The translations under genes and the position numbers were made by a program. The notes beneath the pieces were generated by a model, which worked only from the letters and a program-made list of their open reading frames with translations, was not told the origin of the DNA and did not search any database. Positions 12,669 through 21,497 of a stretch of 36,183 nucleotides of DNA are shown here, in pieces. How positions within the stretch are numbered: position 1 is the first letter of the stretch; each line of letters begins with the position of its first letter. Origin of the DNA: Candidatus Mediterraneibacter vanvlietii (GTDB lineage Bacteria; Bacillota; Clostridia; Lachnospirales; Lachnospiraceae); the NCBI GenBank assembly GCA_019113645.1, contig DXGZ01000096.1:1-36183 (forward strand), given 5' to 3'.

Positions 12669-12697
12669 TTGACAGATGAGAAAAAAACGTTTATATT
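12669..12697 (+). promoter_or_regulatory. promoter of the ATP-grasp operon
   Basis: A perfect TTGACA at 12669-12674 and TATATT at 12692-12697 are 17 bases apart. Transcription would begin near 12704, leaving a leader of about 310 bases before the first gene. Confidence 0.65.
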
Positions 12698-12709
12698 ATC
12701 ACCCATAGC

Positions 12710-12744
12710 AAGGGCGCTTGATCATTTGGTCAGGTGTCCTTTTT
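12710..12744 (+). promoter_or_regulatory. leader hairpin 1 with U tract
   Basis: AAGGGCGCTTGATC (12710-12723) pairs along all 14 bases, using G-U wobbles, with GGTCAGGTGTCCTT (12728-12741) around an ATTT loop, followed by TTT. It starts only a few bases after the predicted transcription start. The shape is terminator-like, but its closeness to the promoter makes a regulatory or RNA-stabilising role equally possible. A small GACCGT/GCGGTC hairpin follows at 12761-12778. Confidence 0.5.
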
Positions 12745-12789
12745 ACATATATGAATACAGGACCGTCCTCAGGCGGTCGGGAGACAAAG

Positions 12790-12829
12790 GCGTTTCTTCT
12801 GTTATATAGTGCAGAGGAAGGCTTTTTTT
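12790..12829 (+). terminator. intrinsic terminator inside the operon leader
   Basis: GC(G)TTTCTTCTG at 12790-12801 pairs with CAGAGGAAGGC at 12812-12822 (11 pairs, one bulged G, two G-U), followed by seven T residues. It stands between the promoter and the first gene, 185 bases ahead of the start codon, so it should act as an attenuator unless the upstream leader RNA or an antiterminator changes the fold. Confidence 0.65.
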
Positions 12830-12830
12830 G

Positions 12831-12975
12831 TTTAATAGGAAACTTCGTTCCCTATCAAACAAAAACGCTCCGCGGGATGCGCACTCGCGCGAAGTGGATA
12901 TTTGTCGCTAAAGCGACCGCGCTCGGCGCGAGAGTTCCGCAAGCGGAACTCTTTGCTCTTTCCGCGGGCAGCGGA
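12831..12975. repeat. GC-rich hairpin cluster (palindromic intergenic element)
   Basis: Consecutive inverted repeats fill the segment: TTTGTTT-ATAGG…CCTAT-AAACAAA (about 12826-12862), GTCGCT-AA-AGCGAC (12904-12917) and a perfect 10-bp AGAGTTCCGC-AA-GCGGAACTCT (12931-12952), bounded by CCGCGG copies near 12872 and 12962. It looks like an inserted palindromic repeat element rather than gene sequence; ribosome access to the gene downstream could depend on its folding. Confidence 0.55.
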
Positions 12976-13014
12976 CCGGGCGGAGATTTGATTTATGTCA
13001 GGAGGAAACACAGC

Positions 13015-14337
13015 ATGAAAGAACTGGTAGAACACACAGAAGGGATCAACCGGCTGATGGCGCGGTACGGCGTCAAATTCGGGATTTATAAAGGCGGTGA
13101 ATTCCACGAGCAGCTCTTTCCGTTCGATGCGATCCCAAGGGTCATCACCCATGATGATTTTCAGCAGCTTGAAAAAGGTCTGATCCAGCGGGTAAATGCG
13201 CTGAATCTGTTCCTGAATGATATATACAGTGAGAAGAAAATCATAAAAGACGGCGTCATACCGGAAGAATTTGTATTTATTTCCTCCGGTTATCTGCCGC
13301 AGTGTGAGGGCATCATGCCGACGAAAAACATATACAGCCACATATCAGGCATCGATCTGGTGCTTGGAAAAGACGGAGAATGGTACATACTAGAGGACAA
13401 CTTACGGATTCCTTCCGGCGCGTCTTATCCCATGATTGCCAGAGAGATATGCAGAAGAGTATCGCCCGCAACATTCAGCAACAACTCTGTTGTAGATAAC
13501 AGGAACTATGCAGCAATGCTGCGGCAGACCATGGACTGGGTGAATACCGGCGGGATTCCGGTCATCATGACGCCGGGGCGCTACAATGCGGCATACTTTG
13601 AGCACTCTTATCTGGCGGAGAGAACGGGCAGCGAGCTTGCCACCTGCACGGATCTGTTTGTGGAAGACAATTTCTTATATTACAGGGATTACCGGGAAAA
13701 GAAGCAGAAAGTGGGCGTGATCTACCGGAGGATCTCGGACGAATATCTGGACCCCATGACATTTAATCCGGAATCGCTGATCGGCATTCCGAATATTATG
13801 GACGTGTACCGCAGCGGAAATGTGGCTATCGTGAACGCTCCGGGAAACGGAGTAGCTGACGACAAGGGCATCTATTATTTCGTCCCCAAAATGATCCGCT
13901 ATTATCTGGATCAGGAGCCGATCCTTAAAAATGCCCCGACTTATCTGCCATTCTACGATGAGGACAGAAAATATGTGCTCGACAATCTGGAGAAGCTGGT
14001 CATCAAGGATGTGGCGGAAGCCGGGGGCTACGGCGTGATCTTCGGAAATGAGCTGAGCAGTGAGAAGCTCTCGGAGATGAAGAAGCTGATCGAGAAAGAA
14101 TCCAGACGTTTTATTGCCCAGGAAGTCGTTGATTTTCAGGATATGGAGGTCATGGAGGGGGAGGACAGAGTGCTCAGGAAAGCAGATCTCCGGGCATTTG
14201 TCCTGTCTGGCGAGACTACGCAGGTATGGCCCGGCGGTCTTACCAGATTTTCGAGGAATGCGGATTCATTTGTGGTGAATTCATCACAGGGAGGAGGATT
14301 TAAAGACACATGGGTATTATCTCAATGGAAAAAGTAG
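13015..14337 (+). CDS. circularly permuted ATP-grasp amidoligase-like protein
   Basis: The 440-residue protein belongs to the circularly permuted ATP-grasp type 2 family (DUF404/DUF407). Visible motifs in order are ILEDNLRIPSGASYP (126-139), FEHSYLAERTG (195-205), GNGVADDKGIYYFVPKMIRY (278-297), VAEAGGYGVIFG (333-344), the DLRAFVLSG strand (391-399), PGGLTRFS (406-413) and SSQGGGFKDTWVL (423-435). These supply nucleotide and metal binding. ATP-grasp enzymes join a carboxylate to an amine; the substrate here is unknown. ATG 13015 is chosen because AGGAGGAA lies ~7 bases upstream, rejecting a 99-residue extension through leader hairpins. It is the first gene of a five-gene operon and overlaps the next gene by 28 bases. 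Confidence 0.9.
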   Translation: MKELVEHTEGINRLMARYGVKFGIYKGGEFHEQLFPFDAIPRVITHDDFQQLEKGLIQRVNALNLFLNDIYSEKKIIKDGVIPEEFVFISSGYLPQCEGIMPTKNIYSHISGIDLVLGKDGEWYILEDNLRIPSGASYPMIAREICRRVSPATFSNNSVVDNRNYAAMLRQTMDWVNTGGIPVIMTPGRYNAAYFEHSYLAERTGSELATCTDLFVEDNFLYYRDYREKKQKVGVIYRRISDEYLDPMTFNPESLIGIPNIMDVYRSGNVAIVNAPGNGVADDKGIYYFVPKMIRYYLDQEPILKNAPTYLPFYDEDRKYVLDNLEKLVIKDVAEAGGYGVIFGNELSSEKLSEMKKLIEKESRRFIAQEVVDFQDMEVMEGEDRVLRKADLRAFVLSGETTQVWPGGLTRFSRNADSFVVNSSQGGGFKDTWVLSQWKK

Positions 14338-14984
14338 ATCATCTGTACTGGCTCGGACGCTATACAGAGAGAGTTTATACAACGCTGCGGGTGTTCTTTC
14401 ATATCTATGACAAAATGATCGAACAGCCGGAAGGGATTTATGCGAAATACTGCGAAAGGCTGAATATCCCGAATATCTATACATCTAACCGGCAGTTTGC
14501 CATGTCATATCTTTTCGGCGAAAACAATCCGGATTCCCTGCGCTCTAATATGGAGCGTGCCTATGATAATGCAGTGGTACTCAGAGACGAACTGAGCACT
14601 ACGGTGCTTTCCTATGTACAGCTTGCATTGGACGCTTTTGAGGCTTGCAGGAAAACGACGGCCCCACTTCTCGAACTGCAGCAGGTGATCGATGATCTGC
14701 TTGCTTTCTGGGGAGGTGCAGATGATTATGTGGAACAGGAGGACTGCCGCAATATCCTGAAATGCGGGAAATATGTAGAGCGGCTTGACCTCTGTATGCG
14801 GCTTGATTATCATACGGAAAACCTGGAAAAAGAGTACAGAAAACTGTGTAACAGGCTCGGAAAAACAAATCTGGTTTACCATGAGGCAAGTCTGAACCGT
14901 CTGGAAGAGATCATACTGCGGGAGGAGCATCCGGAGCAGTACTACAGGGAAGCGCTGGGGTGCCTGGGCGCTCTGCTGGCATAG
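14310..14984 (+). CDS. alpha-E domain protein (DUF403)
   Basis: The 224-residue, mostly helical protein begins MEKVDHLYWLGRYTERVYTT within its first 25 residues, matching the RADNLYWLGRYxER opening of the alpha-E (DUF403) family. That family almost always accompanies circularly permuted ATP-grasp genes. Its role is not proven; a partner or scaffold of the ligase is the usual suggestion. At 224 residues it is shorter than the ~300-residue alpha-E proteins I know from proteobacteria and actinobacteria. ATG 14310 uses GGAGGAGG 12 bases upstream; ATG 14325 is an alternative. The 28-base overlap with the ATP-grasp gene points to translational coupling. Confidence 0.85.
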   Translation: MGIISMEKVDHLYWLGRYTERVYTTLRVFFHIYDKMIEQPEGIYAKYCERLNIPNIYTSNRQFAMSYLFGENNPDSLRSNMERAYDNAVVLRDELSTTVLSYVQLALDAFEACRKTTAPLLELQQVIDDLLAFWGGADDYVEQEDCRNILKCGKYVERLDLCMRLDYHTENLEKEYRKLCNRLGKTNLVYHEASLNRLEEIILREEHPEQYYREALGCLGALLA

Positions 14985-15022
14985 GTGGCCGATTTACAGC
15001 TGGCCAATTTAGAGGCTTGATT

Positions 15023-15907
15023 ATGAGAAAATTAAAATTTAAGTACAGTATGGAACTGAAATTTTCATCTCCGGTGAGCAGACATTATTTTGCACTGCGC
15101 TGCGTCCCCGGGGATTCTTTGCGGCAGAAGATCACGGTGGCCGAATGCCGTGTGAGTCCTGCCGATTACACAAGTGCAGATAAAGACGGATTCGGGAACC
15201 TGAAGATCAGCGGCAGCTGCCGGAGATTACATGATATGTTCAGCTATTATGTCGCGGGTACAGCCGTTGTGCAGGGAATGACCGTGCAGAAATGTCCTCT
15301 TCATCCCATGTACCGGTATCCGTCAAAGTATACTGAACCCGGACCGGGAATCACTGCATTTGCAGAGAAAGTGTCACAGAAGTGTAAAAGACAGGGGACA
15401 GAGACAGCTATGGAGAGAGCAGTGTGCGCCATGCATGATCTGTATACCCGTTTTCAATATATCCCTGGCGTGACGGATATCGGGACAACTGCAGAACAGG
15501 CGCTCATGCAGGGAAAGGGCGTATGTCAGGACTATGCCCATATCATGATCGCAGTGATGCGTCAAATGGGAATCCCGGCAAGGTATGTAAACGGTCTGAT
15601 GATCGGGGAGGGAGCCACCCATGCGTGGGTGGAAATTTATACGGACGGCGGCTGGTACGGTCTGGACCCGACAAATGACCTGCATATCGATGATTACTAT
15701 ATCAAGCTCGCTCACGGGCGGGATTACGCGGACTGCGTGGTAGACAAAGGAATCTTTCTGGGAAATGCATCTCAGGAACAGAAAATATATGTGAATGTGG
15801 AGGAAATCAGTGATGGTAGAGACAGTAGTGTCAATGGAACTGCCGGTGGACGAGAAGCTGACGATCCGGAAAAACCGGATCATGCCGACACATCCCACAG
15901 GGGATGA
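15023..15907 (+). CDS. transglutaminase-like cysteine protease domain protein
   Basis: The 294-residue protein has an N-terminal beta-rich region (about 1-110, like the bacterial transglutaminase N domain) and a transglutaminase-like core with an intact triad: Cys168 in GKGVCQDYAH, His200 in GATHAWVE and Asp215 in GLDPTND. Bacterial members usually hydrolyse or transfer amide bonds and are standard companions of the ATP-grasp/alpha-E pair. ATG 15023 has AGAGG 7 bases upstream; longer starts run back into the alpha-E gene. The last ~30 residues (from DGRDSSVNG) are Asp/Gly-rich, look unconserved and are encoded over the next gene in another frame, an overlap of 95 bases. No signal peptide, so probably cytoplasmic. 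Confidence 0.88.
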   Translation: MRKLKFKYSMELKFSSPVSRHYFALRCVPGDSLRQKITVAECRVSPADYTSADKDGFGNLKISGSCRRLHDMFSYYVAGTAVVQGMTVQKCPLHPMYRYPSKYTEPGPGITAFAEKVSQKCKRQGTETAMERAVCAMHDLYTRFQYIPGVTDIGTTAEQALMQGKGVCQDYAHIMIAVMRQMGIPARYVNGLMIGEGATHAWVEIYTDGGWYGLDPTNDLHIDDYYIKLAHGRDYADCVVDKGIFLGNASQEQKIYVNVEEISDGRDSSVNGTAGGREADDPEKPDHADTSHRG

Positions 15908-16790
15908 AAAGAGGATCGCGATCGTGACGGGGACTCACGGAGATGAGCTGGAAGGCCAGTTCGTGTGTTATGAGCTGCTCAGAAGGCTGAAGGCGGAGCC
16001 GGGATATCTGAAAGGAATTGTGGACGTCTATCCGGCGCTTAATCCTCTGGGGATCGATTCGATCACAAGGGGAATTCCCATGTTTGATCTGGATATGAAC
16101 CGGATTTTCCCGGGCAATGAGGAAGGCCCCATGATGGAGTCTGTCGTGTACGGGCTCATGGAAGACCTGAAAGGCGCAGATCTGTGCGTGGATATCCATG
16201 CCAGCAATATTTTTCTGATGGAGCTGCCTCAGGTGCGGATCAATGAGCTCACGGCGGAAACCCTTGTCCCCCTTGCAAAGAAGATCAATGTGGACTTTGT
16301 CTGGGTTCATGCATCGGCCACAGTTCTTGAGTCCACTCTTGCTTACAGTCTGAACAGTATCGGAACCCCCACACTGGTCGTTGAGATGGGTGTAGGTATG
16401 CGGATCACAAAAGAATACGGATATCAGCTCGTGGAAGGAATCCTGAATGTGATGAAGGAACTGGGTGTCTGGGAAGGCGATGTGGGAGAAGTGCGGACTC
16501 CCATCGTATCTACGGACCGGGAGGTGGGATACCTGAACGCGGACAGTGCAGGGATCTATGTGCCCCATGTAAAGATCGGCGAACAGGTAGAAGAGGGAAC
16601 GCTTCTTGGAGAGATCTTAAATCCTCTGACCGGGGACGTGGAGCAGTCGGTGACAGCGCCGATCTCAGGACTGGTATTTACAAGGCGAGAGTATCCGGTT
16701 GTCTACAGCGGCTCACTGCTGGGAAGAATACTGGGAAGCAGCGACAAAGAAAAGGAGGCGGATGACAATGCGGAAGACGGAAATATATAA
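15813..16790 (+). CDS. M14 family AstE/AspA-like zinc deacylase (predicted active)
   Basis: The 325-residue protein is a succinylglutamate desuccinylase/aspartoacylase-type M14 metallohydrolase. Zinc ligands are His42 and Glu45 (GTHGDELEG) and His129 (VDIHAS); Glu191 (VVEMG) is the predicted catalytic base. Arg and Asn of DLDMNRIFPG would bind the substrate carboxylate. The C-terminal ~90 residues (GYLNADSAGIYVPHVKIGEQ, GEILNPLTGDV) form a lipoyl-like barrel. It should cleave an amide bond of a small acylated amino acid or peptide. ATG 15813 has GGAGGAA 7 bases upstream; ATG 15795 is an alternative. It overlaps the transglutaminase gene and the following M14 gene, so the operon is tightly coupled. 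Confidence 0.88.
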   Translation: MVETVVSMELPVDEKLTIRKNRIMPTHPTGDEKRIAIVTGTHGDELEGQFVCYELLRRLKAEPGYLKGIVDVYPALNPLGIDSITRGIPMFDLDMNRIFPGNEEGPMMESVVYGLMEDLKGADLCVDIHASNIFLMELPQVRINELTAETLVPLAKKINVDFVWVHASATVLESTLAYSLNSIGTPTLVVEMGVGMRITKEYGYQLVEGILNVMKELGVWEGDVGEVRTPIVSTDREVGYLNADSAGIYVPHVKIGEQVEEGTLLGEILNPLTGDVEQSVTAPISGLVFTRREYPVVYSGSLLGRILGSSDKEKEADDNAEDGNI

Positions 16791-17703
16791 GCTGGGATCA
16801 CCGTACCGGGAGGATCTCACCATCAGCGGCTACACTTTCGGACATGGGCGCAAATCAGCGTGTATCGTGGGAAGCATCCGGGGAAATGAAATACAGCAGC
16901 TCTACGTCTGCTCCCAGATCGTAAGGAAGCTGGAAGAGCTTGAGGCGTCCCACGCCATCGCCTCCGGCAAGGAGATCCTTGTGGTGCCTTCTGTCAATCA
17001 TCATGCCATGAACATAGGCAAGCGGTTCTGGCCGGTGGACAATACGGATATCAACCGGATGTTCCCGGGATACGATCAGGGAGAGACGACGCAGAGGATT
17101 GCGGACGGCGTATTCCGGACGGTAAAAGATTATGACTACGGCATACAGTTTGCAAGCTTTTACATGCCGGGAGACTTTATCCCACACGTCCGTATGATGG
17201 ACACGGGCAGGCAGAACACCAGCCTTGCCGGGCTGTTCGGACTTCCCTATGTAGTGGTGAGAAAGCCAAAGCCTATAGATACGACCACATTGAACTATAA
17301 CTGGCAGATCTGGGATACCAACGCATTCTCCCTGTATACGATGGAGACAGACTTTATCGATGAAGCATCTGCCCAGCAGGCAGTATCCGCAGTGCTGCGT
17401 TTCCTGACCAGAATGGGTATTCTGAAATACAACAGCCATAACGGATACATCTCTACGGTGATCGGCGAGGAAGAACTGGCATCCGTGCGGACGGCTTCAG
17501 GCGGCATATACAGAAGACTGTGCCATCCCGGAGACGAAGTGCGGATGGGAACACCCCTTGCAGAGATTGTCCATCCCTACGAGGGGAATGTGATCTCCAC
17601 GGTGCTTTCTCCGACAGAAGGGATCGTGTTCTTCACACATAAGAAACCCCTCGTGACGGAGAATGAAGTGATATGTAAGATCATACGCAGGCTGCATGCA
17701 TAA
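16768..17703 (+). CDS. M14 family AstE/AspA-like protein, degenerate zinc site
   Basis: The 311-residue protein is a paralogue of the preceding gene: NTDINRMFPG matches DLDMNRIFPG, and the C-terminal GIYRRLCHPGDEVRMGTPLA matches its barrel domain. The metal site is altered, however: GTHGDE becomes GSIRGNE (Arg38 for the first His) and VDIHAS becomes YGIQFAS (Gln127 for the third ligand), while Glu41 is kept. It may be a non-catalytic partner or use a different chemistry. ATG 16768 has AGGAGG 9 bases upstream and lies inside the previous gene. It ends the operon, with a terminator-like hairpin right after. Confidence 0.87.
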   Translation: MRKTEIYKLGSPYREDLTISGYTFGHGRKSACIVGSIRGNEIQQLYVCSQIVRKLEELEASHAIASGKEILVVPSVNHHAMNIGKRFWPVDNTDINRMFPGYDQGETTQRIADGVFRTVKDYDYGIQFASFYMPGDFIPHVRMMDTGRQNTSLAGLFGLPYVVVRKPKPIDTTTLNYNWQIWDTNAFSLYTMETDFIDEASAQQAVSAVLRFLTRMGILKYNSHNGYISTVIGEEELASVRTASGGIYRRLCHPGDEVRMGTPLAEIVHPYEGNVISTVLSPTEGIVFFTHKKPLVTENEVICKIIRRLHA

Positions 17704-17706
17704 CGA

Positions 17707-17743
17707 AAAAAGTGGGGCTGTCGGAAAATAGATAGTCCCTTTT
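17707..17743 (+). terminator. terminator of the ATP-grasp operon
   Basis: AAAAAG(T)GGGGCT pairs with AGTCCCTTTTT across a 14-base loop, with one bulged base and one G-U pair, ending in five T. It begins a few bases after the last gene of the operon. The stem is imperfect but positioned as expected. Confidence 0.55.
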
Positions 17744-18179: not shown

Positions 18180-19064
18180 ATGCTTTATGAGAACCTGAAT
18201 CAGCGGAAGAAAGAACTGGGACTTACAACAGAACAGCTCTCCCAGCTGTCGGGAGTGCCGGTGGGAACGATCAATAAGATCTTAAGCGGGGAGACGCGTT
18301 CTCCGCGATATGATACGCTTCGTGCTCTTGAGGATGTCTTGTATGGCGCTGCAGGCAGCGGGAACCTGGAACCTGATCCCGGCAGAAGCATCTATGATAC
18401 AGCTTATGACCGGACAGACAGTTTATGGGCAAAAGCCGGCGATGAGGCATATCGGAATCTGCCGGATGCTGTCAGAGAAGCGGCTGCTCCGTATGTTACG
18501 AAAAGACAGGGAGAATATACGGCAGACGATTACAGGAAGCTGCCCGAAGATGTCCGGGCGGAGCTGATCGACGGCGTGCTTATTTTTCTCGAAGCTCCTA
18601 CATTTACTCATCAGGAGCTGGTGACAGAAATTTTGCTGGATTTTGGGCTTTATATCCGAAAAAACAAGGGCCCCTGCCGTGTGCTTGCGTCGCCTCTGGA
18701 TGTGCAGATTGACTGCGATGACAGAACGATCGTGCAGCCGGATATCGCTCTGATCTGCAATGAGGAAAGGATCACGCGGAAAGGAATCTACGGGGCACCG
18801 GACTTCTGCATTGAGATCGTTTCGGATCCCAGCCGGAAGAGGGACTACGGGATTAAGGTGCAGAAGTATATGAATGCCGGCGTGCGGGAATACTGGATCG
18901 TGGACCGAAAGAGAGAAAAGATCGTATGCTATTGGTTCGAGGGTGAGGATGCTCCGGAAATCTCGATGTATACGTTCCGTGATAAAGTGCCTGTGAGGAT
19001 TTATGACGGACAGCTTGAGATCGACTTCCCGGGAATCATGCAGCGCTTGTGGAAAGAAGAGTAA
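18180..19064 (+). CDS. XRE helix-turn-helix fused to a Uma2-type endonuclease-like domain
   Basis: Residues 1-60 form a Cro/CI-type helix-turn-helix (TTEQLSQLSGVPVGTINKIL, SGETRSPRYDTLRALEDVL). After a linker, residues ~105-290 form a Uma2/DUF820 domain of the PD-(D/E)XK superfamily: ELIDGVLIFLEAPTFTHQ, IVQPDIALIC, GAPDFCIEIVSDPSRKRDYG and VREYWIVD. The Asp of QPD and the Glu of IEIVS are the expected metal ligands. Uma2 proteins are numerous, often in multicopy, without firm function. Fusion to a DNA-binding domain suggests a site-directed nuclease or a regulator. GGAAGGGGGG precedes the ATG. The 294-residue protein looks intact and is monocistronic. Confidence 0.85.
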   Translation: MLYENLNQRKKELGLTTEQLSQLSGVPVGTINKILSGETRSPRYDTLRALEDVLYGAAGSGNLEPDPGRSIYDTAYDRTDSLWAKAGDEAYRNLPDAVREAAAPYVTKRQGEYTADDYRKLPEDVRAELIDGVLIFLEAPTFTHQELVTEILLDFGLYIRKNKGPCRVLASPLDVQIDCDDRTIVQPDIALICNEERITRKGIYGAPDFCIEIVSDPSRKRDYGIKVQKYMNAGVREYWIVDRKREKIVCYWFEGEDAPEISMYTFRDKVPVRIYDGQLEIDFPGIMQRLWKEE

Positions 19065-19097: not shown

Positions 19098-20690
19098 TTA
19101 TCCGAGTATCTCCTTGAGATCCTGCTCCGGTGTTGTGGTCGGGCGGATTCCGTAATTCTTCACAAGAAAATCAAGCACGCCGGGTGACAGGAACGCCGGA
19201 AGCGTGGGTCCGAGATAAATATTCCGAATACCCAGGTGCAGGAGTGTCAACAGGATACAGACAGCTTTCTGCTCATACCAGGACAGCACCAGTGTCAGCG
19301 GCAGGTCGTTGACGCAGCAGTCAAACGCATCCGCCAGAGCAAGGGCAGCACGGATTGCACTGTATGCATCGTTGCACTGCCCCATGTCCATGATCCGTGG
19401 AAGTCCGCCGATGGTACCCAGATTAAGGTCGTTGAACCTGTATTTTCCGCAGGCGAGAGTGAGCACTGCCGTATCAGACGGTGTCTGCTTTACAAAATCT
19501 GTATAATAGCTGCGGCCTTTTCTCGCTCCGTCGCATCCGCCTACAAGGAAAATGTGCCTTAAGGCGCCGCCTTTTACTGCATCTACGATCGTACCTGCGG
19601 CGGATAATACGGTATTGCGCGCAAATCCTGTGGTGACAGTTTTTCCGCCGTTGATTCCGGTGAAGTCCTGGTCTTCCGGGTAGCCGCCCAGTTCCAGAGC
19701 TTTTTCGATGACAGGTGTGAAGTCTTTATCTTCTCCAATGTGGATAACTCCCGGATAAGAGACAACTTCTGTTGTAAACACACGGTCCGCATAACTTGCT
19801 TTCGGCGGCATCAGACAATTGGTCGTAAACAGGACCGGAGCAGGAATGTTAGCAAATTCTTTCTGCTGATTATGCCATGCGGTGCCGAAATTCCCTTTCA
19901 GATGCGGGTAAGCTTTCAGTTTCGGATATGCGTGTGCCGGAAGCATCTCGCCGTTGGTATAGATATTGATCCCTTTCCCTTCTGTCTGTTCCAGAAGAAG
20001 CTGCAGGTCTTTCAGATCGTGCCCGCTGATCACGATAAACGGTCCTTTCTCCACTGTAAGTGGCACGGTGACAGGAATCGGATCCCCGTAGCACTCAGTG
20101 TTTGCCTGATCCAGAAGCGCCATACATTTCAGATTGATCTCGCCCACTTTCATTACAATGGGAAGAAGCTGCTCCATGTTCAGATCTTCGCCGATGGCGA
20201 ACATTCCTTCATAGAAGAAAGCGTTGACTTCTTCATCAGAATAACCCAGTACCATTGCGTGGTACGCATATGCCGCCATTCCTCTGAGACCGAACAGAAT
20301 CAGGGATTTCAGAGAGCGGGTATCCTCGTCTGCATTCCAAAGCAGCCTCATATCGTAATCCTCTGTCCTGCCGCATGGCTGGGCGCAGTCTCCGCATCCG
20401 GGGAGGAGGGCGTTTTTCTCTCTTGTTACATTTTCAATCTGTTGACAGATCGTCTCCTCGTTAAAGTTTACATTGGTGATCGTTGTAAACAGCCCCTCGA
20501 TCATTGCCTGATGAGTGGACGAAGAGGGCGTATTTCCGCTGGCTGCCCGTGCAAGGCCGATCAGGGCGCCTGTAAGTTTATCCTGCAGTCCGGCCACATC
20601 TGCGCTCTTTCCGCAGACTCCGGCTTTGCCGGTGCATCCGGTACATCCTGCAGTCTGTTCACACTGAAAACAAAACATATTATCTGACAT
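19098..20690 (-). CDS. hcp: hydroxylamine reductase (hybrid cluster protein)
   Basis: The 530-residue protein begins MSDNMFCFQCEQTAG and continues with further cysteines (CTGCTGKAGVC) that bind the N-terminal iron-sulfur cluster. Hybrid-cluster ligands follow: ISGHDLKDL, TTNCLMPP, VGGCDGARKGRSYYTDF, ACGKYRFN. Hcp reduces hydroxylamine or nitric oxide and protects anaerobes against nitrosative stress; it acts in the cytoplasm. The second ATG (20690) is preferred because AGGAGG lies 8 bases from it and only 2 bases from ATG 20696. The gene is divergent from a Crp/Fnr-type regulator at 20838, a classic pairing. Length is as expected for Hcp. Confidence 0.95.
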   Translation of the reverse strand: MSDNMFCFQCEQTAGCTGCTGKAGVCGKSADVAGLQDKLTGALIGLARAASGNTPSSSTHQAMIEGLFTTITNVNFNEETICQQIENVTREKNALLPGCGDCAQPCGRTEDYDMRLLWNADEDTRSLKSLILFGLRGMAAYAYHAMVLGYSDEEVNAFFYEGMFAIGEDLNMEQLLPIVMKVGEINLKCMALLDQANTECYGDPIPVTVPLTVEKGPFIVISGHDLKDLQLLLEQTEGKGINIYTNGEMLPAHAYPKLKAYPHLKGNFGTAWHNQQKEFANIPAPVLFTTNCLMPPKASYADRVFTTEVVSYPGVIHIGEDKDFTPVIEKALELGGYPEDQDFTGINGGKTVTTGFARNTVLSAAGTIVDAVKGGALRHIFLVGGCDGARKGRSYYTDFVKQTPSDTAVLTLACGKYRFNDLNLGTIGGLPRIMDMGQCNDAYSAIRAALALADAFDCCVNDLPLTLVLSWYEQKAVCILLTLLHLGIRNIYLGPTLPAFLSPGVLDFLVKNYGIRPTTTPEQDLKEILG

Positions 20691-20762
20691 TTCCATAACC
20701 TCCTGTCAGCGCCGGCCGCATTTTTGTCTGTATACCGGCACTGTAATTGATTTCTGTATTGC

Positions 20763-20825
20763 ATCGTTTGACGATGTATTCTGAGCATAGTACAATGTTT
20801 AAAACAAGACGGTTGTAAATACAAC
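20763..20825 (+). promoter_or_regulatory. crp-type promoter and candidate operators between hcp and its regulator
   Basis: TTGACG (20768-20773) and TACAAT (20791-20796), 17 bases apart, form the promoter of the regulator. The inverted repeat CATCGT-TTG-ACGATG overlaps its -35 element. A second perfect repeat GTTGTA-AA-TACAAC at 20812-20825 lies between promoter and gene. Both are dyad sites of the size bound by Crp/Fnr dimers; which one the regulator uses is not readable. Confidence 0.5.
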
Positions 20826-20837
20826 AGAAAGGTAATT

Positions 20838-21497
20838 ATGAAAAAATATTTATCACTACTAAAAAATTCAAAGCTGTTTCAGGGAATCAGTGAAGATGAA
20901 CTTACATCTATGCTGGACTGTTTATCCGCAGTCACGCGGAGTTATCATAAGGGAGAGAACATCTTCAGTAGGGGAGAGCGCATTGACAGTGTGGCGTTGC
21001 TTCTGGAGGGATGTATCCATATTCAGAAAGAAGATTACTGGGGGAATCTGAGTATCCTCAGCGAGATTTCAGAAGGAGAAATATTCGGTGAAGTGTATGC
21101 CTGCCTCGGGAGCTATGAATTAATGAATAATGCGGTTGCTGTAAAACCGAGTAAAGTGCTCTTCCTGGATGTGAAGCGGATTCTCACCATGTGCCCGTCG
21201 GCCTGTCAGTTCCACGGGCGGCTGATCCGCAATCTGCTTACTGTGCTCGCTCAAAAGAATAAAATGCTAACCCAGAAGCTGGAGCATATGTCCAGAAGAA
21301 CGACAAGGGAAAAGCTTCTCTCTTATCTGTCAGAGCAGTCCCAGAGAGCCGGAAGCCCGGTATTTGATATCCCCTTTAACCGGCAGCAGCTCGCGGACTT
21401 TCTCTCCGTGGACCGGAGCGCCATGTCCGCAGAGCTGTGCAGGATGCGGGATGAGGGGATACTGTCCTTTGACAGAAATCACTTTGTACTGGAATGA
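20838..21497 (+). CDS. Crp/Fnr family regulator, probable HcpR-like regulator of hcp
   Basis: The 219-residue protein has an N-terminal cyclic-nucleotide-binding-type beta barrel (YHKGENIFSRGERIDSVALL, GEIFGEVYACLG) and a C-terminal Crp-type winged helix (RQQLADFLSVDRSAMSAELC followed by RMRDEGIL). It lacks the N-terminal Cys cluster of Fnr. Clostridial hcp genes are commonly preceded by such a divergent regulator responding to nitrosative stress, so control of hcp is the likely role; the effector is inference. AGAAAGGTAAT gives the ribosome binding site. Length is normal. Confidence 0.88.
   Translation: MKKYLSLLKNSKLFQGISEDELTSMLDCLSAVTRSYHKGENIFSRGERIDSVALLLEGCIHIQKEDYWGNLSILSEISEGEIFGEVYACLGSYELMNNAVAVKPSKVLFLDVKRILTMCPSACQFHGRLIRNLLTVLAQKNKMLTQKLEHMSRRTTREKLLSYLSEQSQRAGSPVFDIPFNRQQLADFLSVDRSAMSAELCRMRDEGILSFDRNHFVLE

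What the first reader, a model, noticed from the sequence alone, without database searches (positions are those of the whole stretch)
12669..17703. Five-gene permuted ATP-grasp / alpha-E / transglutaminase / double M14 operon
Seen: five same-strand genes, each overlapping or closely spaced with the next, with intact catalytic motifs in the ATP-grasp, transglutaminase and first M14 proteins. Known: permuted ATP-grasp, alpha-E and transglutaminase genes co-occur widely and have been predicted by comparative genomics to make amide or peptide products, but I know of no defined product. Inference: adding two AstE/AspA-like deacylases suggests a system that both builds and trims or removes a small amide-linked compound, such as a cytoplasmic peptide or a modification on a carboxylate. 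The absence of an export or NRPS gene suggests an intracellular product.
Basis: partly seen in the sequence, partly recalled or inferred. Interest (0 to 1): 0.8.

Follow-up and report, generated by a model that had tools for sequence, protein, structure and literature searches.

The report
Amide-making operon with inactive hydrolase twin
A conserved five-gene set in gut bacteria looks built to make and later cut a small amide compound, and one of its two cutting proteins has lost the metal-binding residues needed to cut, which hints at an unrecognised way of storing or recycling a metabolite.

Summary
The five genes are real, same-strand and tightly packed: circularly permuted ATP-grasp, alpha-E, transglutaminase-like (TG), and two AstE/AspA-type M14 proteins. 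This is no strain quirk: all five, on one strand, occur in 93 of 139 related loci, from Clostridia to Acidaminococcaceae, Bacteroidota and Sutterellaceae. Two corrections. First, the second M14 (M14b) is a conserved pseudoenzyme: one zinc histidine is Arg in 134 of 134 sequences, the other is never His, the catalytic Glu varies. M14a keeps its active site in 102 of 102 operon copies. Second, this is a distinct branch of the known ATP-grasp/alpha-E/TG system: short alpha-E, separate ATP-grasp clade, and an M14 pair where some classical operons carry proteasome-like Anbu. None of 30 classical loci shows M14. Exceptions: 9 of 21 loci in the Phascolarctobacterium order show no M14 beside the core; 28 of the 139 loci have the M14 genes without the other three. 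Best reading: ATP-grasp makes an amide or isopeptide; M14a, partnered by M14b, hydrolyses it. A nitrogen-storage role is plausible, unproven. The product is unknown.

The parts
12669..12697 (+). promoter-like site (TTGACA-17-TATATT) upstream of the operon
   Evidence: 11 of 12 matches; not more such sites in the region than in shuffles, so suggestive only
13015..14337 (+). circularly permuted ATP-grasp (ligase), probable true start 13015 (the longest ORF begins 12718)
   Evidence: PF14403 4.8e-138; 3n6x_A E 8.3e-114; AGGAGG 13000-13005
14310..14984 (+). alpha-E protein, short type (224 aa), all-helical
   Evidence: PF04168, model positions 6-164 of 294; pLDDT 93.1; no PDB match with E <= 0.001
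15023..15907 (+). transglutaminase-like cysteine enzyme with Cys189/His221/Asp236 (numbered from the ORF start 14960)
   Evidence: PF01841, PF08379; conserved residues; 3isr_A E 9.5e-16
15813..16790 (+). M14a: AstE/AspA-type zinc amidohydrolase with intact site (H48, E51, R92, N102, R103, H135, E197, numbered from the ORF start 15795)
16768..17703 (+). M14b: AstE/AspA-type pseudoenzyme (zinc His positions are R61 and A152, numbered from the ORF start 16699)
17714..17739 (+). terminator-like hairpin and T-run just after the operon
   Evidence: terminator-like sites in the region 7 found against a mean of 4.1 in shuffles

Best explanation
The operon encodes a distinct, M14-type branch of the circularly permuted ATP-grasp/alpha-E/transglutaminase system. 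Step 1 (inferred from family chemistry): the ATP-grasp protein activates a carboxylate as acyl phosphate and joins it to an amine, making a small amide or isopeptide, with alpha-E as a dedicated helical partner that holds the substrate or product. Step 2 (inferred): the TG-like Cys-His-Asp enzyme transfers or trims an acyl group of that product. Step 3 (zinc site shown by sequence, reaction inferred): M14a is an AstE/AspA-type zinc hydrolase that cleaves an amide beside a free carboxylate and so undoes or matures the product. Step 4 (loss of zinc-ligand residues shown, role inferred): M14b is a degenerate relative kept as M14a's near-constant partner, probably as a heteromer subunit that binds or gates the substrate. 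Together this is a make-and-break amide cycle. By analogy with CphZ (an M14 enzyme that cuts the cyanophycin dipeptide beta-Asp-Arg), and with the nitrogen-limitation response of the classical ATP-grasp/alpha-E/TG operon in Proteobacteria, the likeliest physiological class is storage or recycling of amino-nitrogen; that last step is the weakest.
For: Conserved set: all five genes in 93 of 139 loci examined, same strand in 93 of 93, median gaps near zero or overlapping; one 514-aa frame matching both alpha-E and TG in G451. Co-occurrence: alpha-E without M14b in 0 of 200 family genomes and 0 of 291 class genomes. M14a active site 102 of 102 in operon loci. M14b: Arg at the first zinc-His position 134 of 134; A, T, P, S, R or V at the second; catalytic Glu only 41 of 134; yet W111, S153, G158, D194, N199 and W202 are each kept in at least 132 of 134, and the M14 fold is predicted (pLDDT 86.1; best PDB matches 3cdx, 2qj8, EutE/DoeB 6twm, CphZ 8ein/8eip). 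M14a and M14b occur together in 135 of the 138 loci with M14b. Separate branch: M14-type ATP-grasp one clade of 80 rows, SH-aLRT 100, against 25 classical rows; 0 of 30 classical loci show M14. N link of the classical type: NtrC regulon in Burkholderia cenocepacia (PMC5491218, passages), the P. putida ATP-grasp gene in a table of nitrogen-sensitive genes (PMC8050072, passage), urea-linked in marine metagenomes (PMC3597751, passages). Phosphate release from ATP by the Y. bercovieri homologue is reported (PMC6376114, passages).
Against: No substrate or product is known for any member that I saw described. The nitrogen evidence is from the classical branch, separated from this one by very long branches; PMC5666114 (passages) also says expression of those operons does not change under various other conditions. 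PMC6376114 (passages) detected no specific interaction among the Yersinia operon proteins and no amidase activity of Anbu. By Pfam, 24 of the 51 family genomes with a strong M14b match have no alpha-E (two of the 24, G136 and G124, still show a weak alpha-E-like or an ATP-grasp frame at the locus), and 9 of 21 loci in the order of Phascolarctobacterium have ATP-grasp/alpha-E/TG without M14 beside them (2 of those 9 end at a contig edge), so neither half strictly needs the other. In pair-only loci M14a residues erode (R103 kept in 16 of 27, H48 in 22 of 27), but R103 is only the 11th least-kept of 80 near-invariant columns, so this is general divergence as much as active-site loss. M14a scores 61 bits against the DoeB model (cut-off 402.7), and its only CphZ sequence matches are weak and C-terminal: neither substrate can be assigned. 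No M14a-M14b complex was modelled.
Confidence: 0.5

Rival explanations
1. Protein or peptide tagging: the ATP-grasp/alpha-E/TG set attaches a small group to proteins or peptides, and M14a/M14b remove it, like a deconjugating enzyme.
For: Proposed in print for the Anbu operon (PMC6376114 passages; PMC5666114 passages). Some M14 carboxypeptidases act on protein tails (CCP5, 8v3n, appears among the distant fold matches of M14b; its role is recalled).
Against: M14a and M14b are closest to small-molecule deacylases (DoeB, AstE/AspA, CphZ). No candidate tag protein recurs in the neighbourhood: the most widespread neighbour cluster is in 13 of 80 loci and looks like ABC transporter proteins (my reading, no family search).
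Confidence: 0.15
2. Biosynthesis: M14a is a maturation step (removes a protecting acyl or amino-acid group from an ATP-grasp product), so the operon makes one finished metabolite and does not recycle it.
For: Same gene order with M14a after TG; all 102 operon copies keep the M14a site, as expected of an obligate step.
Against: The M14 genes persist alone in 28 loci, and the core persists without M14 beside it in 9 of 21 loci of the order of Phascolarctobacterium.
Confidence: 0.2
3. The M14 pair is a sensor or regulator (pseudoenzyme-led) of the product, not its hydrolase, and its catalytic residues serve binding.
For: M14b lacks the zinc ligands throughout; some pair-only M14a have lost a zinc His (5 of 27) or R103 (11 of 27) while the two genes stay together.
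Against: In operon loci M14a keeps H48, E51, R103, H135 and E197 in 102 of 102. Pfam finds no DNA-binding domain in either protein.
Confidence: 0.1

Closest known systems
Classical ATP-grasp / alpha-E / transglutaminase operon, often with Anbu (predicted peptide-synthesis or tagging system; Iyer et al. 2009, not read, cited through PMC6376114 and PMC5666114 passages)
   Same: Same three enzyme families in the same order; in the Anbu form the set also includes a hydrolase-fold protein.
   Different: Short alpha-E (model positions 6-164 of 294 against near full length), a separate ATP-grasp clade, and an active/inactive M14 pair after TG. The window's genome has no PF00227 protein; 7 of 8 other M14-type genomes have none.
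EutE/DoeB N-acetyl-2,4-diaminobutyrate deacetylase and other AstE/AspA M14 enzymes (6twl/6twm, 3cdx, 2qj8)
   Same: HxxE...H zinc site and N-R motif in M14a by alignment; fold in M14b.
   Different: Score far below the DoeB cut-off (61 against 402.7 bits). M14b lacks the zinc ligands. M14a and M14b share a P-x-V-R stretch (Q146/R148 and R165) that DoeB lacks in the alignment.
CphZ cyanophycin dipeptide hydrolase (8ein/8eip)
   Same: M14 AstE/AspA-type fold; a precedent for such an enzyme undoing an ATP-dependent isopeptide nitrogen store (PMC10206079 passages).
   Different: Only weak C-terminal sequence matches to M14a (E 7e-5 to 1e-4). CphA and CphB were not searched for.
CP ATP-grasp 3n6x (deposited as putative glutathionylspermidine synthase)
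   Same: Homology over nearly the whole protein (E 8.3e-114).
   Different: The function of 3n6x is itself marked putative by the depositors.

Membership tests
ATP-grasp/alpha-E/transglutaminase system | circularly permuted ATP-grasp | tested here: met
   PF14403 460.6 bits (cut-off 32)
ATP-grasp/alpha-E/transglutaminase system | alpha-E protein | tested here: met
   PF04168 70.9 bits (cut-off 20.8), but only about half of the model
ATP-grasp/alpha-E/transglutaminase system | TG-like protein with Cys-His-Asp | tested here: met
ATP-grasp/alpha-E/transglutaminase system | conserved same-strand gene order | tested here: met
   93 of 139 loci with all five genes, 93 of 93 same strand
Anbu-type operon (subtype) | Anbu (proteasome beta-like) gene | tested here: not met
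   no PF00227 match in the genome (98% complete); the same search finds the family in 10 of 14 control genomes
Anbu-type operon (subtype) | induction by nitrogen limitation | not testable with these tools
   reported for the classical type only
AstE/AspA M14 hydrolase (M14a) | family domain and zinc site with catalytic Glu | tested here: met
AstE/AspA M14 hydrolase (M14b) | family fold | tested here: met
AstE/AspA M14 hydrolase (M14b) | zinc ligands | tested here: not met
   first His is Arg in 134 of 134; second never His
AstE/AspA M14 hydrolase (M14b) | catalytic Glu | tested here: not met
   E in 41 of 134 (present in the window's copy)
DoeB | NCBIfam TIGR02994 cut-off | tested here: not met
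   61.1 against 402.7 bits
CphZ / cyanophycin degradation | beta-Asp-Arg specificity and cyanophycin genes | not tested
anti-phage defence | match to a PADLOC model | tested here: not met
   0 families for the five proteins at E 0.01

The most novel reading that the evidence does not exclude
Gut anaerobes make a small isopeptide nitrogen reserve with an ATP-grasp/alpha-E pair and recover it with a zinc hydrolase that works only as a heteromer with its own dead paralogue; lineages that keep the M14 pair but lost the synthetic genes are consumers of the compound made by others.
Probability: 0.12. Interest if true: 0.85.

Novelty: new variant of a known kind. Interest (0 to 1): 0.6.

Why it matters
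The ATP-grasp/alpha-E/TG system is widespread (79 genomes with near-full-length alpha-E among 150 of one order), and no product was named in the passages I saw. This branch gives two handles the Anbu branch lacks: a hydrolase from a family with known small-molecule amide chemistry, which can serve as a bait for the product, and natural variants (three-gene core alone, M14 pair alone, full set) that allow a comparative metabolomics design. A pseudoenzyme kept beside its active relative across several phyla is also a clean case for asking what dead M14 proteins do.

Tried and rejected
Defence system: no PADLOC match for any of the five proteins. RNA element in the window: no Rfam match at gathering thresholds. 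Known relative of alpha-E by fold: AlphaFold model of high confidence (pLDDT 93.1), but Foldseek against the PDB gave 0 matches at E <= 0.001, and sequence and profile searches of the PDB gave one match at E 0.51 and none at E <= 1. Conserved extra operon gene: neighbours were clustered over 80 loci; the commonest cluster is in 13, so none was added. Strict rule 'short alpha-E always has M14': rejected by 9 of 21 loci in the order of Phascolarctobacterium. A claim that pair-only M14a loses its active site specifically: weakened by the control over 80 near-invariant columns. M14a and M14b as a tandem duplicate: both form one group against 10 other Clostridia M14 proteins (97/88), but the program warns that long branches meet, so it is only suggested. 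A first reading that M14b F151 sits at the second zinc-His position was corrected to A152 from the alignments with solved structures. Papers: Iyer 2009 and the CphZ paper are not held, so I cannot say whether an M14 association is already in print; in the listings of searches I recognised no paper that describes it. Passages of PMC3710099, PMC13207237, PMC7701253, PMC8407117, PMC3610870, PMC9284123, PMC8147232 and PMC12661447 added nothing that I used, apart from single table rows naming an ATP-grasp gene.
Full report
What is there. The window holds five overlapping or abutting + strand genes: circularly permuted ATP-grasp, alpha-E, a transglutaminase-like cysteine enzyme (TG), and two AstE/AspA-type M14 proteins. 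Probable starts are 13015, 14310, 15023, 15813 and 16768; those of ATP-grasp, M14a and M14b lie behind a good ribosome site. The nearest relatives are Mediterraneibacter (Lachnospiraceae): loci with about 97% identical M14b. Across relatives, TG Cys189, His221 and Asp236 and many ATP-grasp motif columns are conserved at 97% or more (102 TG and 83 ATP-grasp rows). Order and family names below are taken from record titles of relatives; searched groups are 'family', 'class' or 'order of' a genome as the tool defines them.

Is it more than chance? Yes. One scan of 84,980 species genomes with M14b found 115 relatives, of which the best 80 were kept. With 58 further loci from unnamed family genomes and the window, 139 loci were read with profiles of the five families. 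They were chosen because they hold M14b or alpha-E, and the two sets may overlap in species. All five genes are present in 93, all 93 on one strand, with median distances of -19, +4, -8 and -23 bases from a stop codon to the start of the next homologous stretch. The other 46 are 28 pair-only loci, 7 that lie too near a contig end to tell, and 11 with some but not all of the five. In 200 genomes of the family, each of a different genus, 57 have some M14b match, 51 of them strong by my count of the listing; 27 have a Pfam alpha-E and all 27 are among the 51 (Fisher 1e-19, not corrected for kinship). In 291 genomes of the class 7 have alpha-E, all 7 with M14b; 3 more have a strong M14b match alone, and 3 only weak ones. 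The five of the seven outside the window's family all show M14a after TG; in G451 the contig ends inside M14a, and the rest with M14b is on another contig.

M14b is a pseudoenzyme by sequence. Aligned with solved AstE/AspA structures, the first zinc His of M14b is Arg61 in 134 of 134 sequences (those over 250 residues); the second position is A 90, T 29, P 11, S 2, R 1, V 1; the catalytic Glu is E in 41 of 134. Nearby columns do hold a His in a few rows (6 of 134 at column 150, 2 at 154, 6 at 155), so a displaced ligand cannot be ruled out for those. M14b is otherwise strongly conserved (W111 in 132, D194 in 133, W202 in 133 of 134), and its model (pLDDT 86.1) matches 3cdx, 2qj8, EutE/DoeB and CphZ. 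M14a has H48, E51, R92, N102, R103, H135 and E197 in 102 of 102 operon copies of at least 270 residues. M14a is seen in 135 of the 138 loci with M14b; the exceptions are L092, L163 and L177.

A separate branch of a known system. Alpha-E in this operon matches Pfam's model only at about positions 6-164, mostly 55-86 bits. In 150 genomes of the order of Duodenibacillus (Burkholderiales), 81 have alpha-E: 79 of the near-full-length kind and 2 of the short kind; both short ones carry the M14 pair (L095; L251). In 198 genomes of the order of Parabacteroides (Bacteroidales), 8 match: 6 short, all with the M14 pair (L110; L253-L257), 1 full-length without M14 (L252), and 1 weak match without an operon (L258). 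None of 30 classical loci shows M14a or M14b within the 3.5-4.0 kb held, nor do 13 larger classical loci. Anbu is not universal beside classical operons either: of 13 classical genomes, a PF00227 match lies within 2 kb of an alpha-E copy in 4 (G516, G517 just under the cut-off, G840, and G522 at a second cluster), a weak match lies elsewhere in 7, and G523 and G497 have only a strong match of the kind I take for HslV (judged from score and position; not tested). Such strong matches also occur in M14-type G200, G487 and G643. The window's genome has no PF00227 match, 7 of 8 other M14-type genomes none, and of the 11 M14-type genomes among the 24, 8 have none. In a tree of 105 ATP-grasp proteins (120 before near-copies were dropped) the 80 M14-type rows form one side of a branch with SH-aLRT 100.

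Results against a tidy story. In the order of Phascolarctobacterium (63 genomes), 21 have the short alpha-E. One (G491 = L079) was already known to have the pair; the other 20 loci were fetched and read: 11 have M14a and M14b (two with M14b cut by a contig end), 9 do not, and 2 of the 9 stop at a contig end. So the bare three-gene core exists. Conversely 28 loci have the M14 genes with more than 3.5 kb of upstream sequence and no ATP-grasp, alpha-E or TG. In the M14b tree this label needs 7 changes (6 forced by starred branches), and most pair-only rows lie among operon rows, so the state probably arose by loss more than once; deep nodes are weak and the root is a midpoint. In pair-only M14a the kept fraction is 22 of 27 for H48 and 16 of 27 for R103, against 102 of 102; but over 80 near-invariant columns the median is 0.93 and R103 is only the 11th lowest. 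In M14b the columns that differ most between the two states are Y125 (kept in 4%), W205 (15%) and Q132 (26%): candidate contact sites with operon partners or product, confounded by kinship.

How it most likely works. ATP-grasp chemistry (described in PMC6376114, passages) is acyl phosphate then amide; the Yersinia homologue releases phosphate from ATP. The same paper found no specific interactions among the Yersinia operon proteins and no Anbu amidase activity. Alpha-E is a confidently predicted helical protein with no PDB neighbour; its invariant W14, G16, R17, Y18, R21, D34, N87, R92, D128, A132, F133, G153, E157 and D160 (52 rows) lie on or next to four helices and suggest a binding site, not a carrier tail (inference). 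TG resembles a putative cysteine protease (3isr). The N-R motif of M14a corresponds to the carboxylate-binding pair of aspartoacylase (recalled, not tested), so its substrate should bear a carboxylate beside the amide. The nitrogen idea rests on three papers seen in passages about the classical branch or its families, on citations in two Anbu papers, and on the CphZ precedent.

Verdict. A real, conserved system and a new variant of a known kind, with one clear correction (one hydrolase, one pseudoenzyme) and one clear addition (an M14-type branch apart from the classical type). The product and the physiological role remain unknown.

Noticed in passing
window 12834-12986: About 150 bp of hairpin-rich sequence in the operon's 5' leader, absent from L032, L034 and L035 whose leaders align on both sides; five partial matches elsewhere in the genome. 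Looks like a small mobile or repeat element.
   Followed up: partly
L181 and L186 (G451): One 514-aa open frame carries both an alpha-E and a TG match, a likely natural fusion.
   Followed up: partly
L285, L287-L292, L294: In these M14-type loci of the order of Phascolarctobacterium the next long gene after M14b is 467-497 aa; the L292 copy matches a glutamine amidotransferase domain and, weakly, a phosphoribosyltransferase domain (PurF-like; other copies not scanned). L286 and L293 end at contig edges first. These genomes may be close kin.
   Followed up: partly
L057, L058, L120-L123, L126: Pair-only M14 loci that have a gene of the purL-like cluster downstream, some (L057, L058, L121) with a LysR-like gene upstream; some full operons (L059, L060, L062) have the purL-like gene too (Pfam on L121 and L122).
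   Followed up: partly
L063, L064, L065, L068, L070, L082, L110: A gene of the asnB-like cluster lies near the operon in 7 of 80 loci (Pfam checked on L070 only).
   Followed up: no
window 18180-19064: Uma2-family putative nuclease with an N-terminal HTH domain, downstream of the operon.
   Followed up: no
window 19098-21497: Hybrid-cluster (prismane) protein divergent from a Crp-like regulator.
   Followed up: no
G029, G031, G037, G070, G074, G151, G183: Genomes with both an operon locus and a second, pair-only M14 locus.
   Followed up: partly
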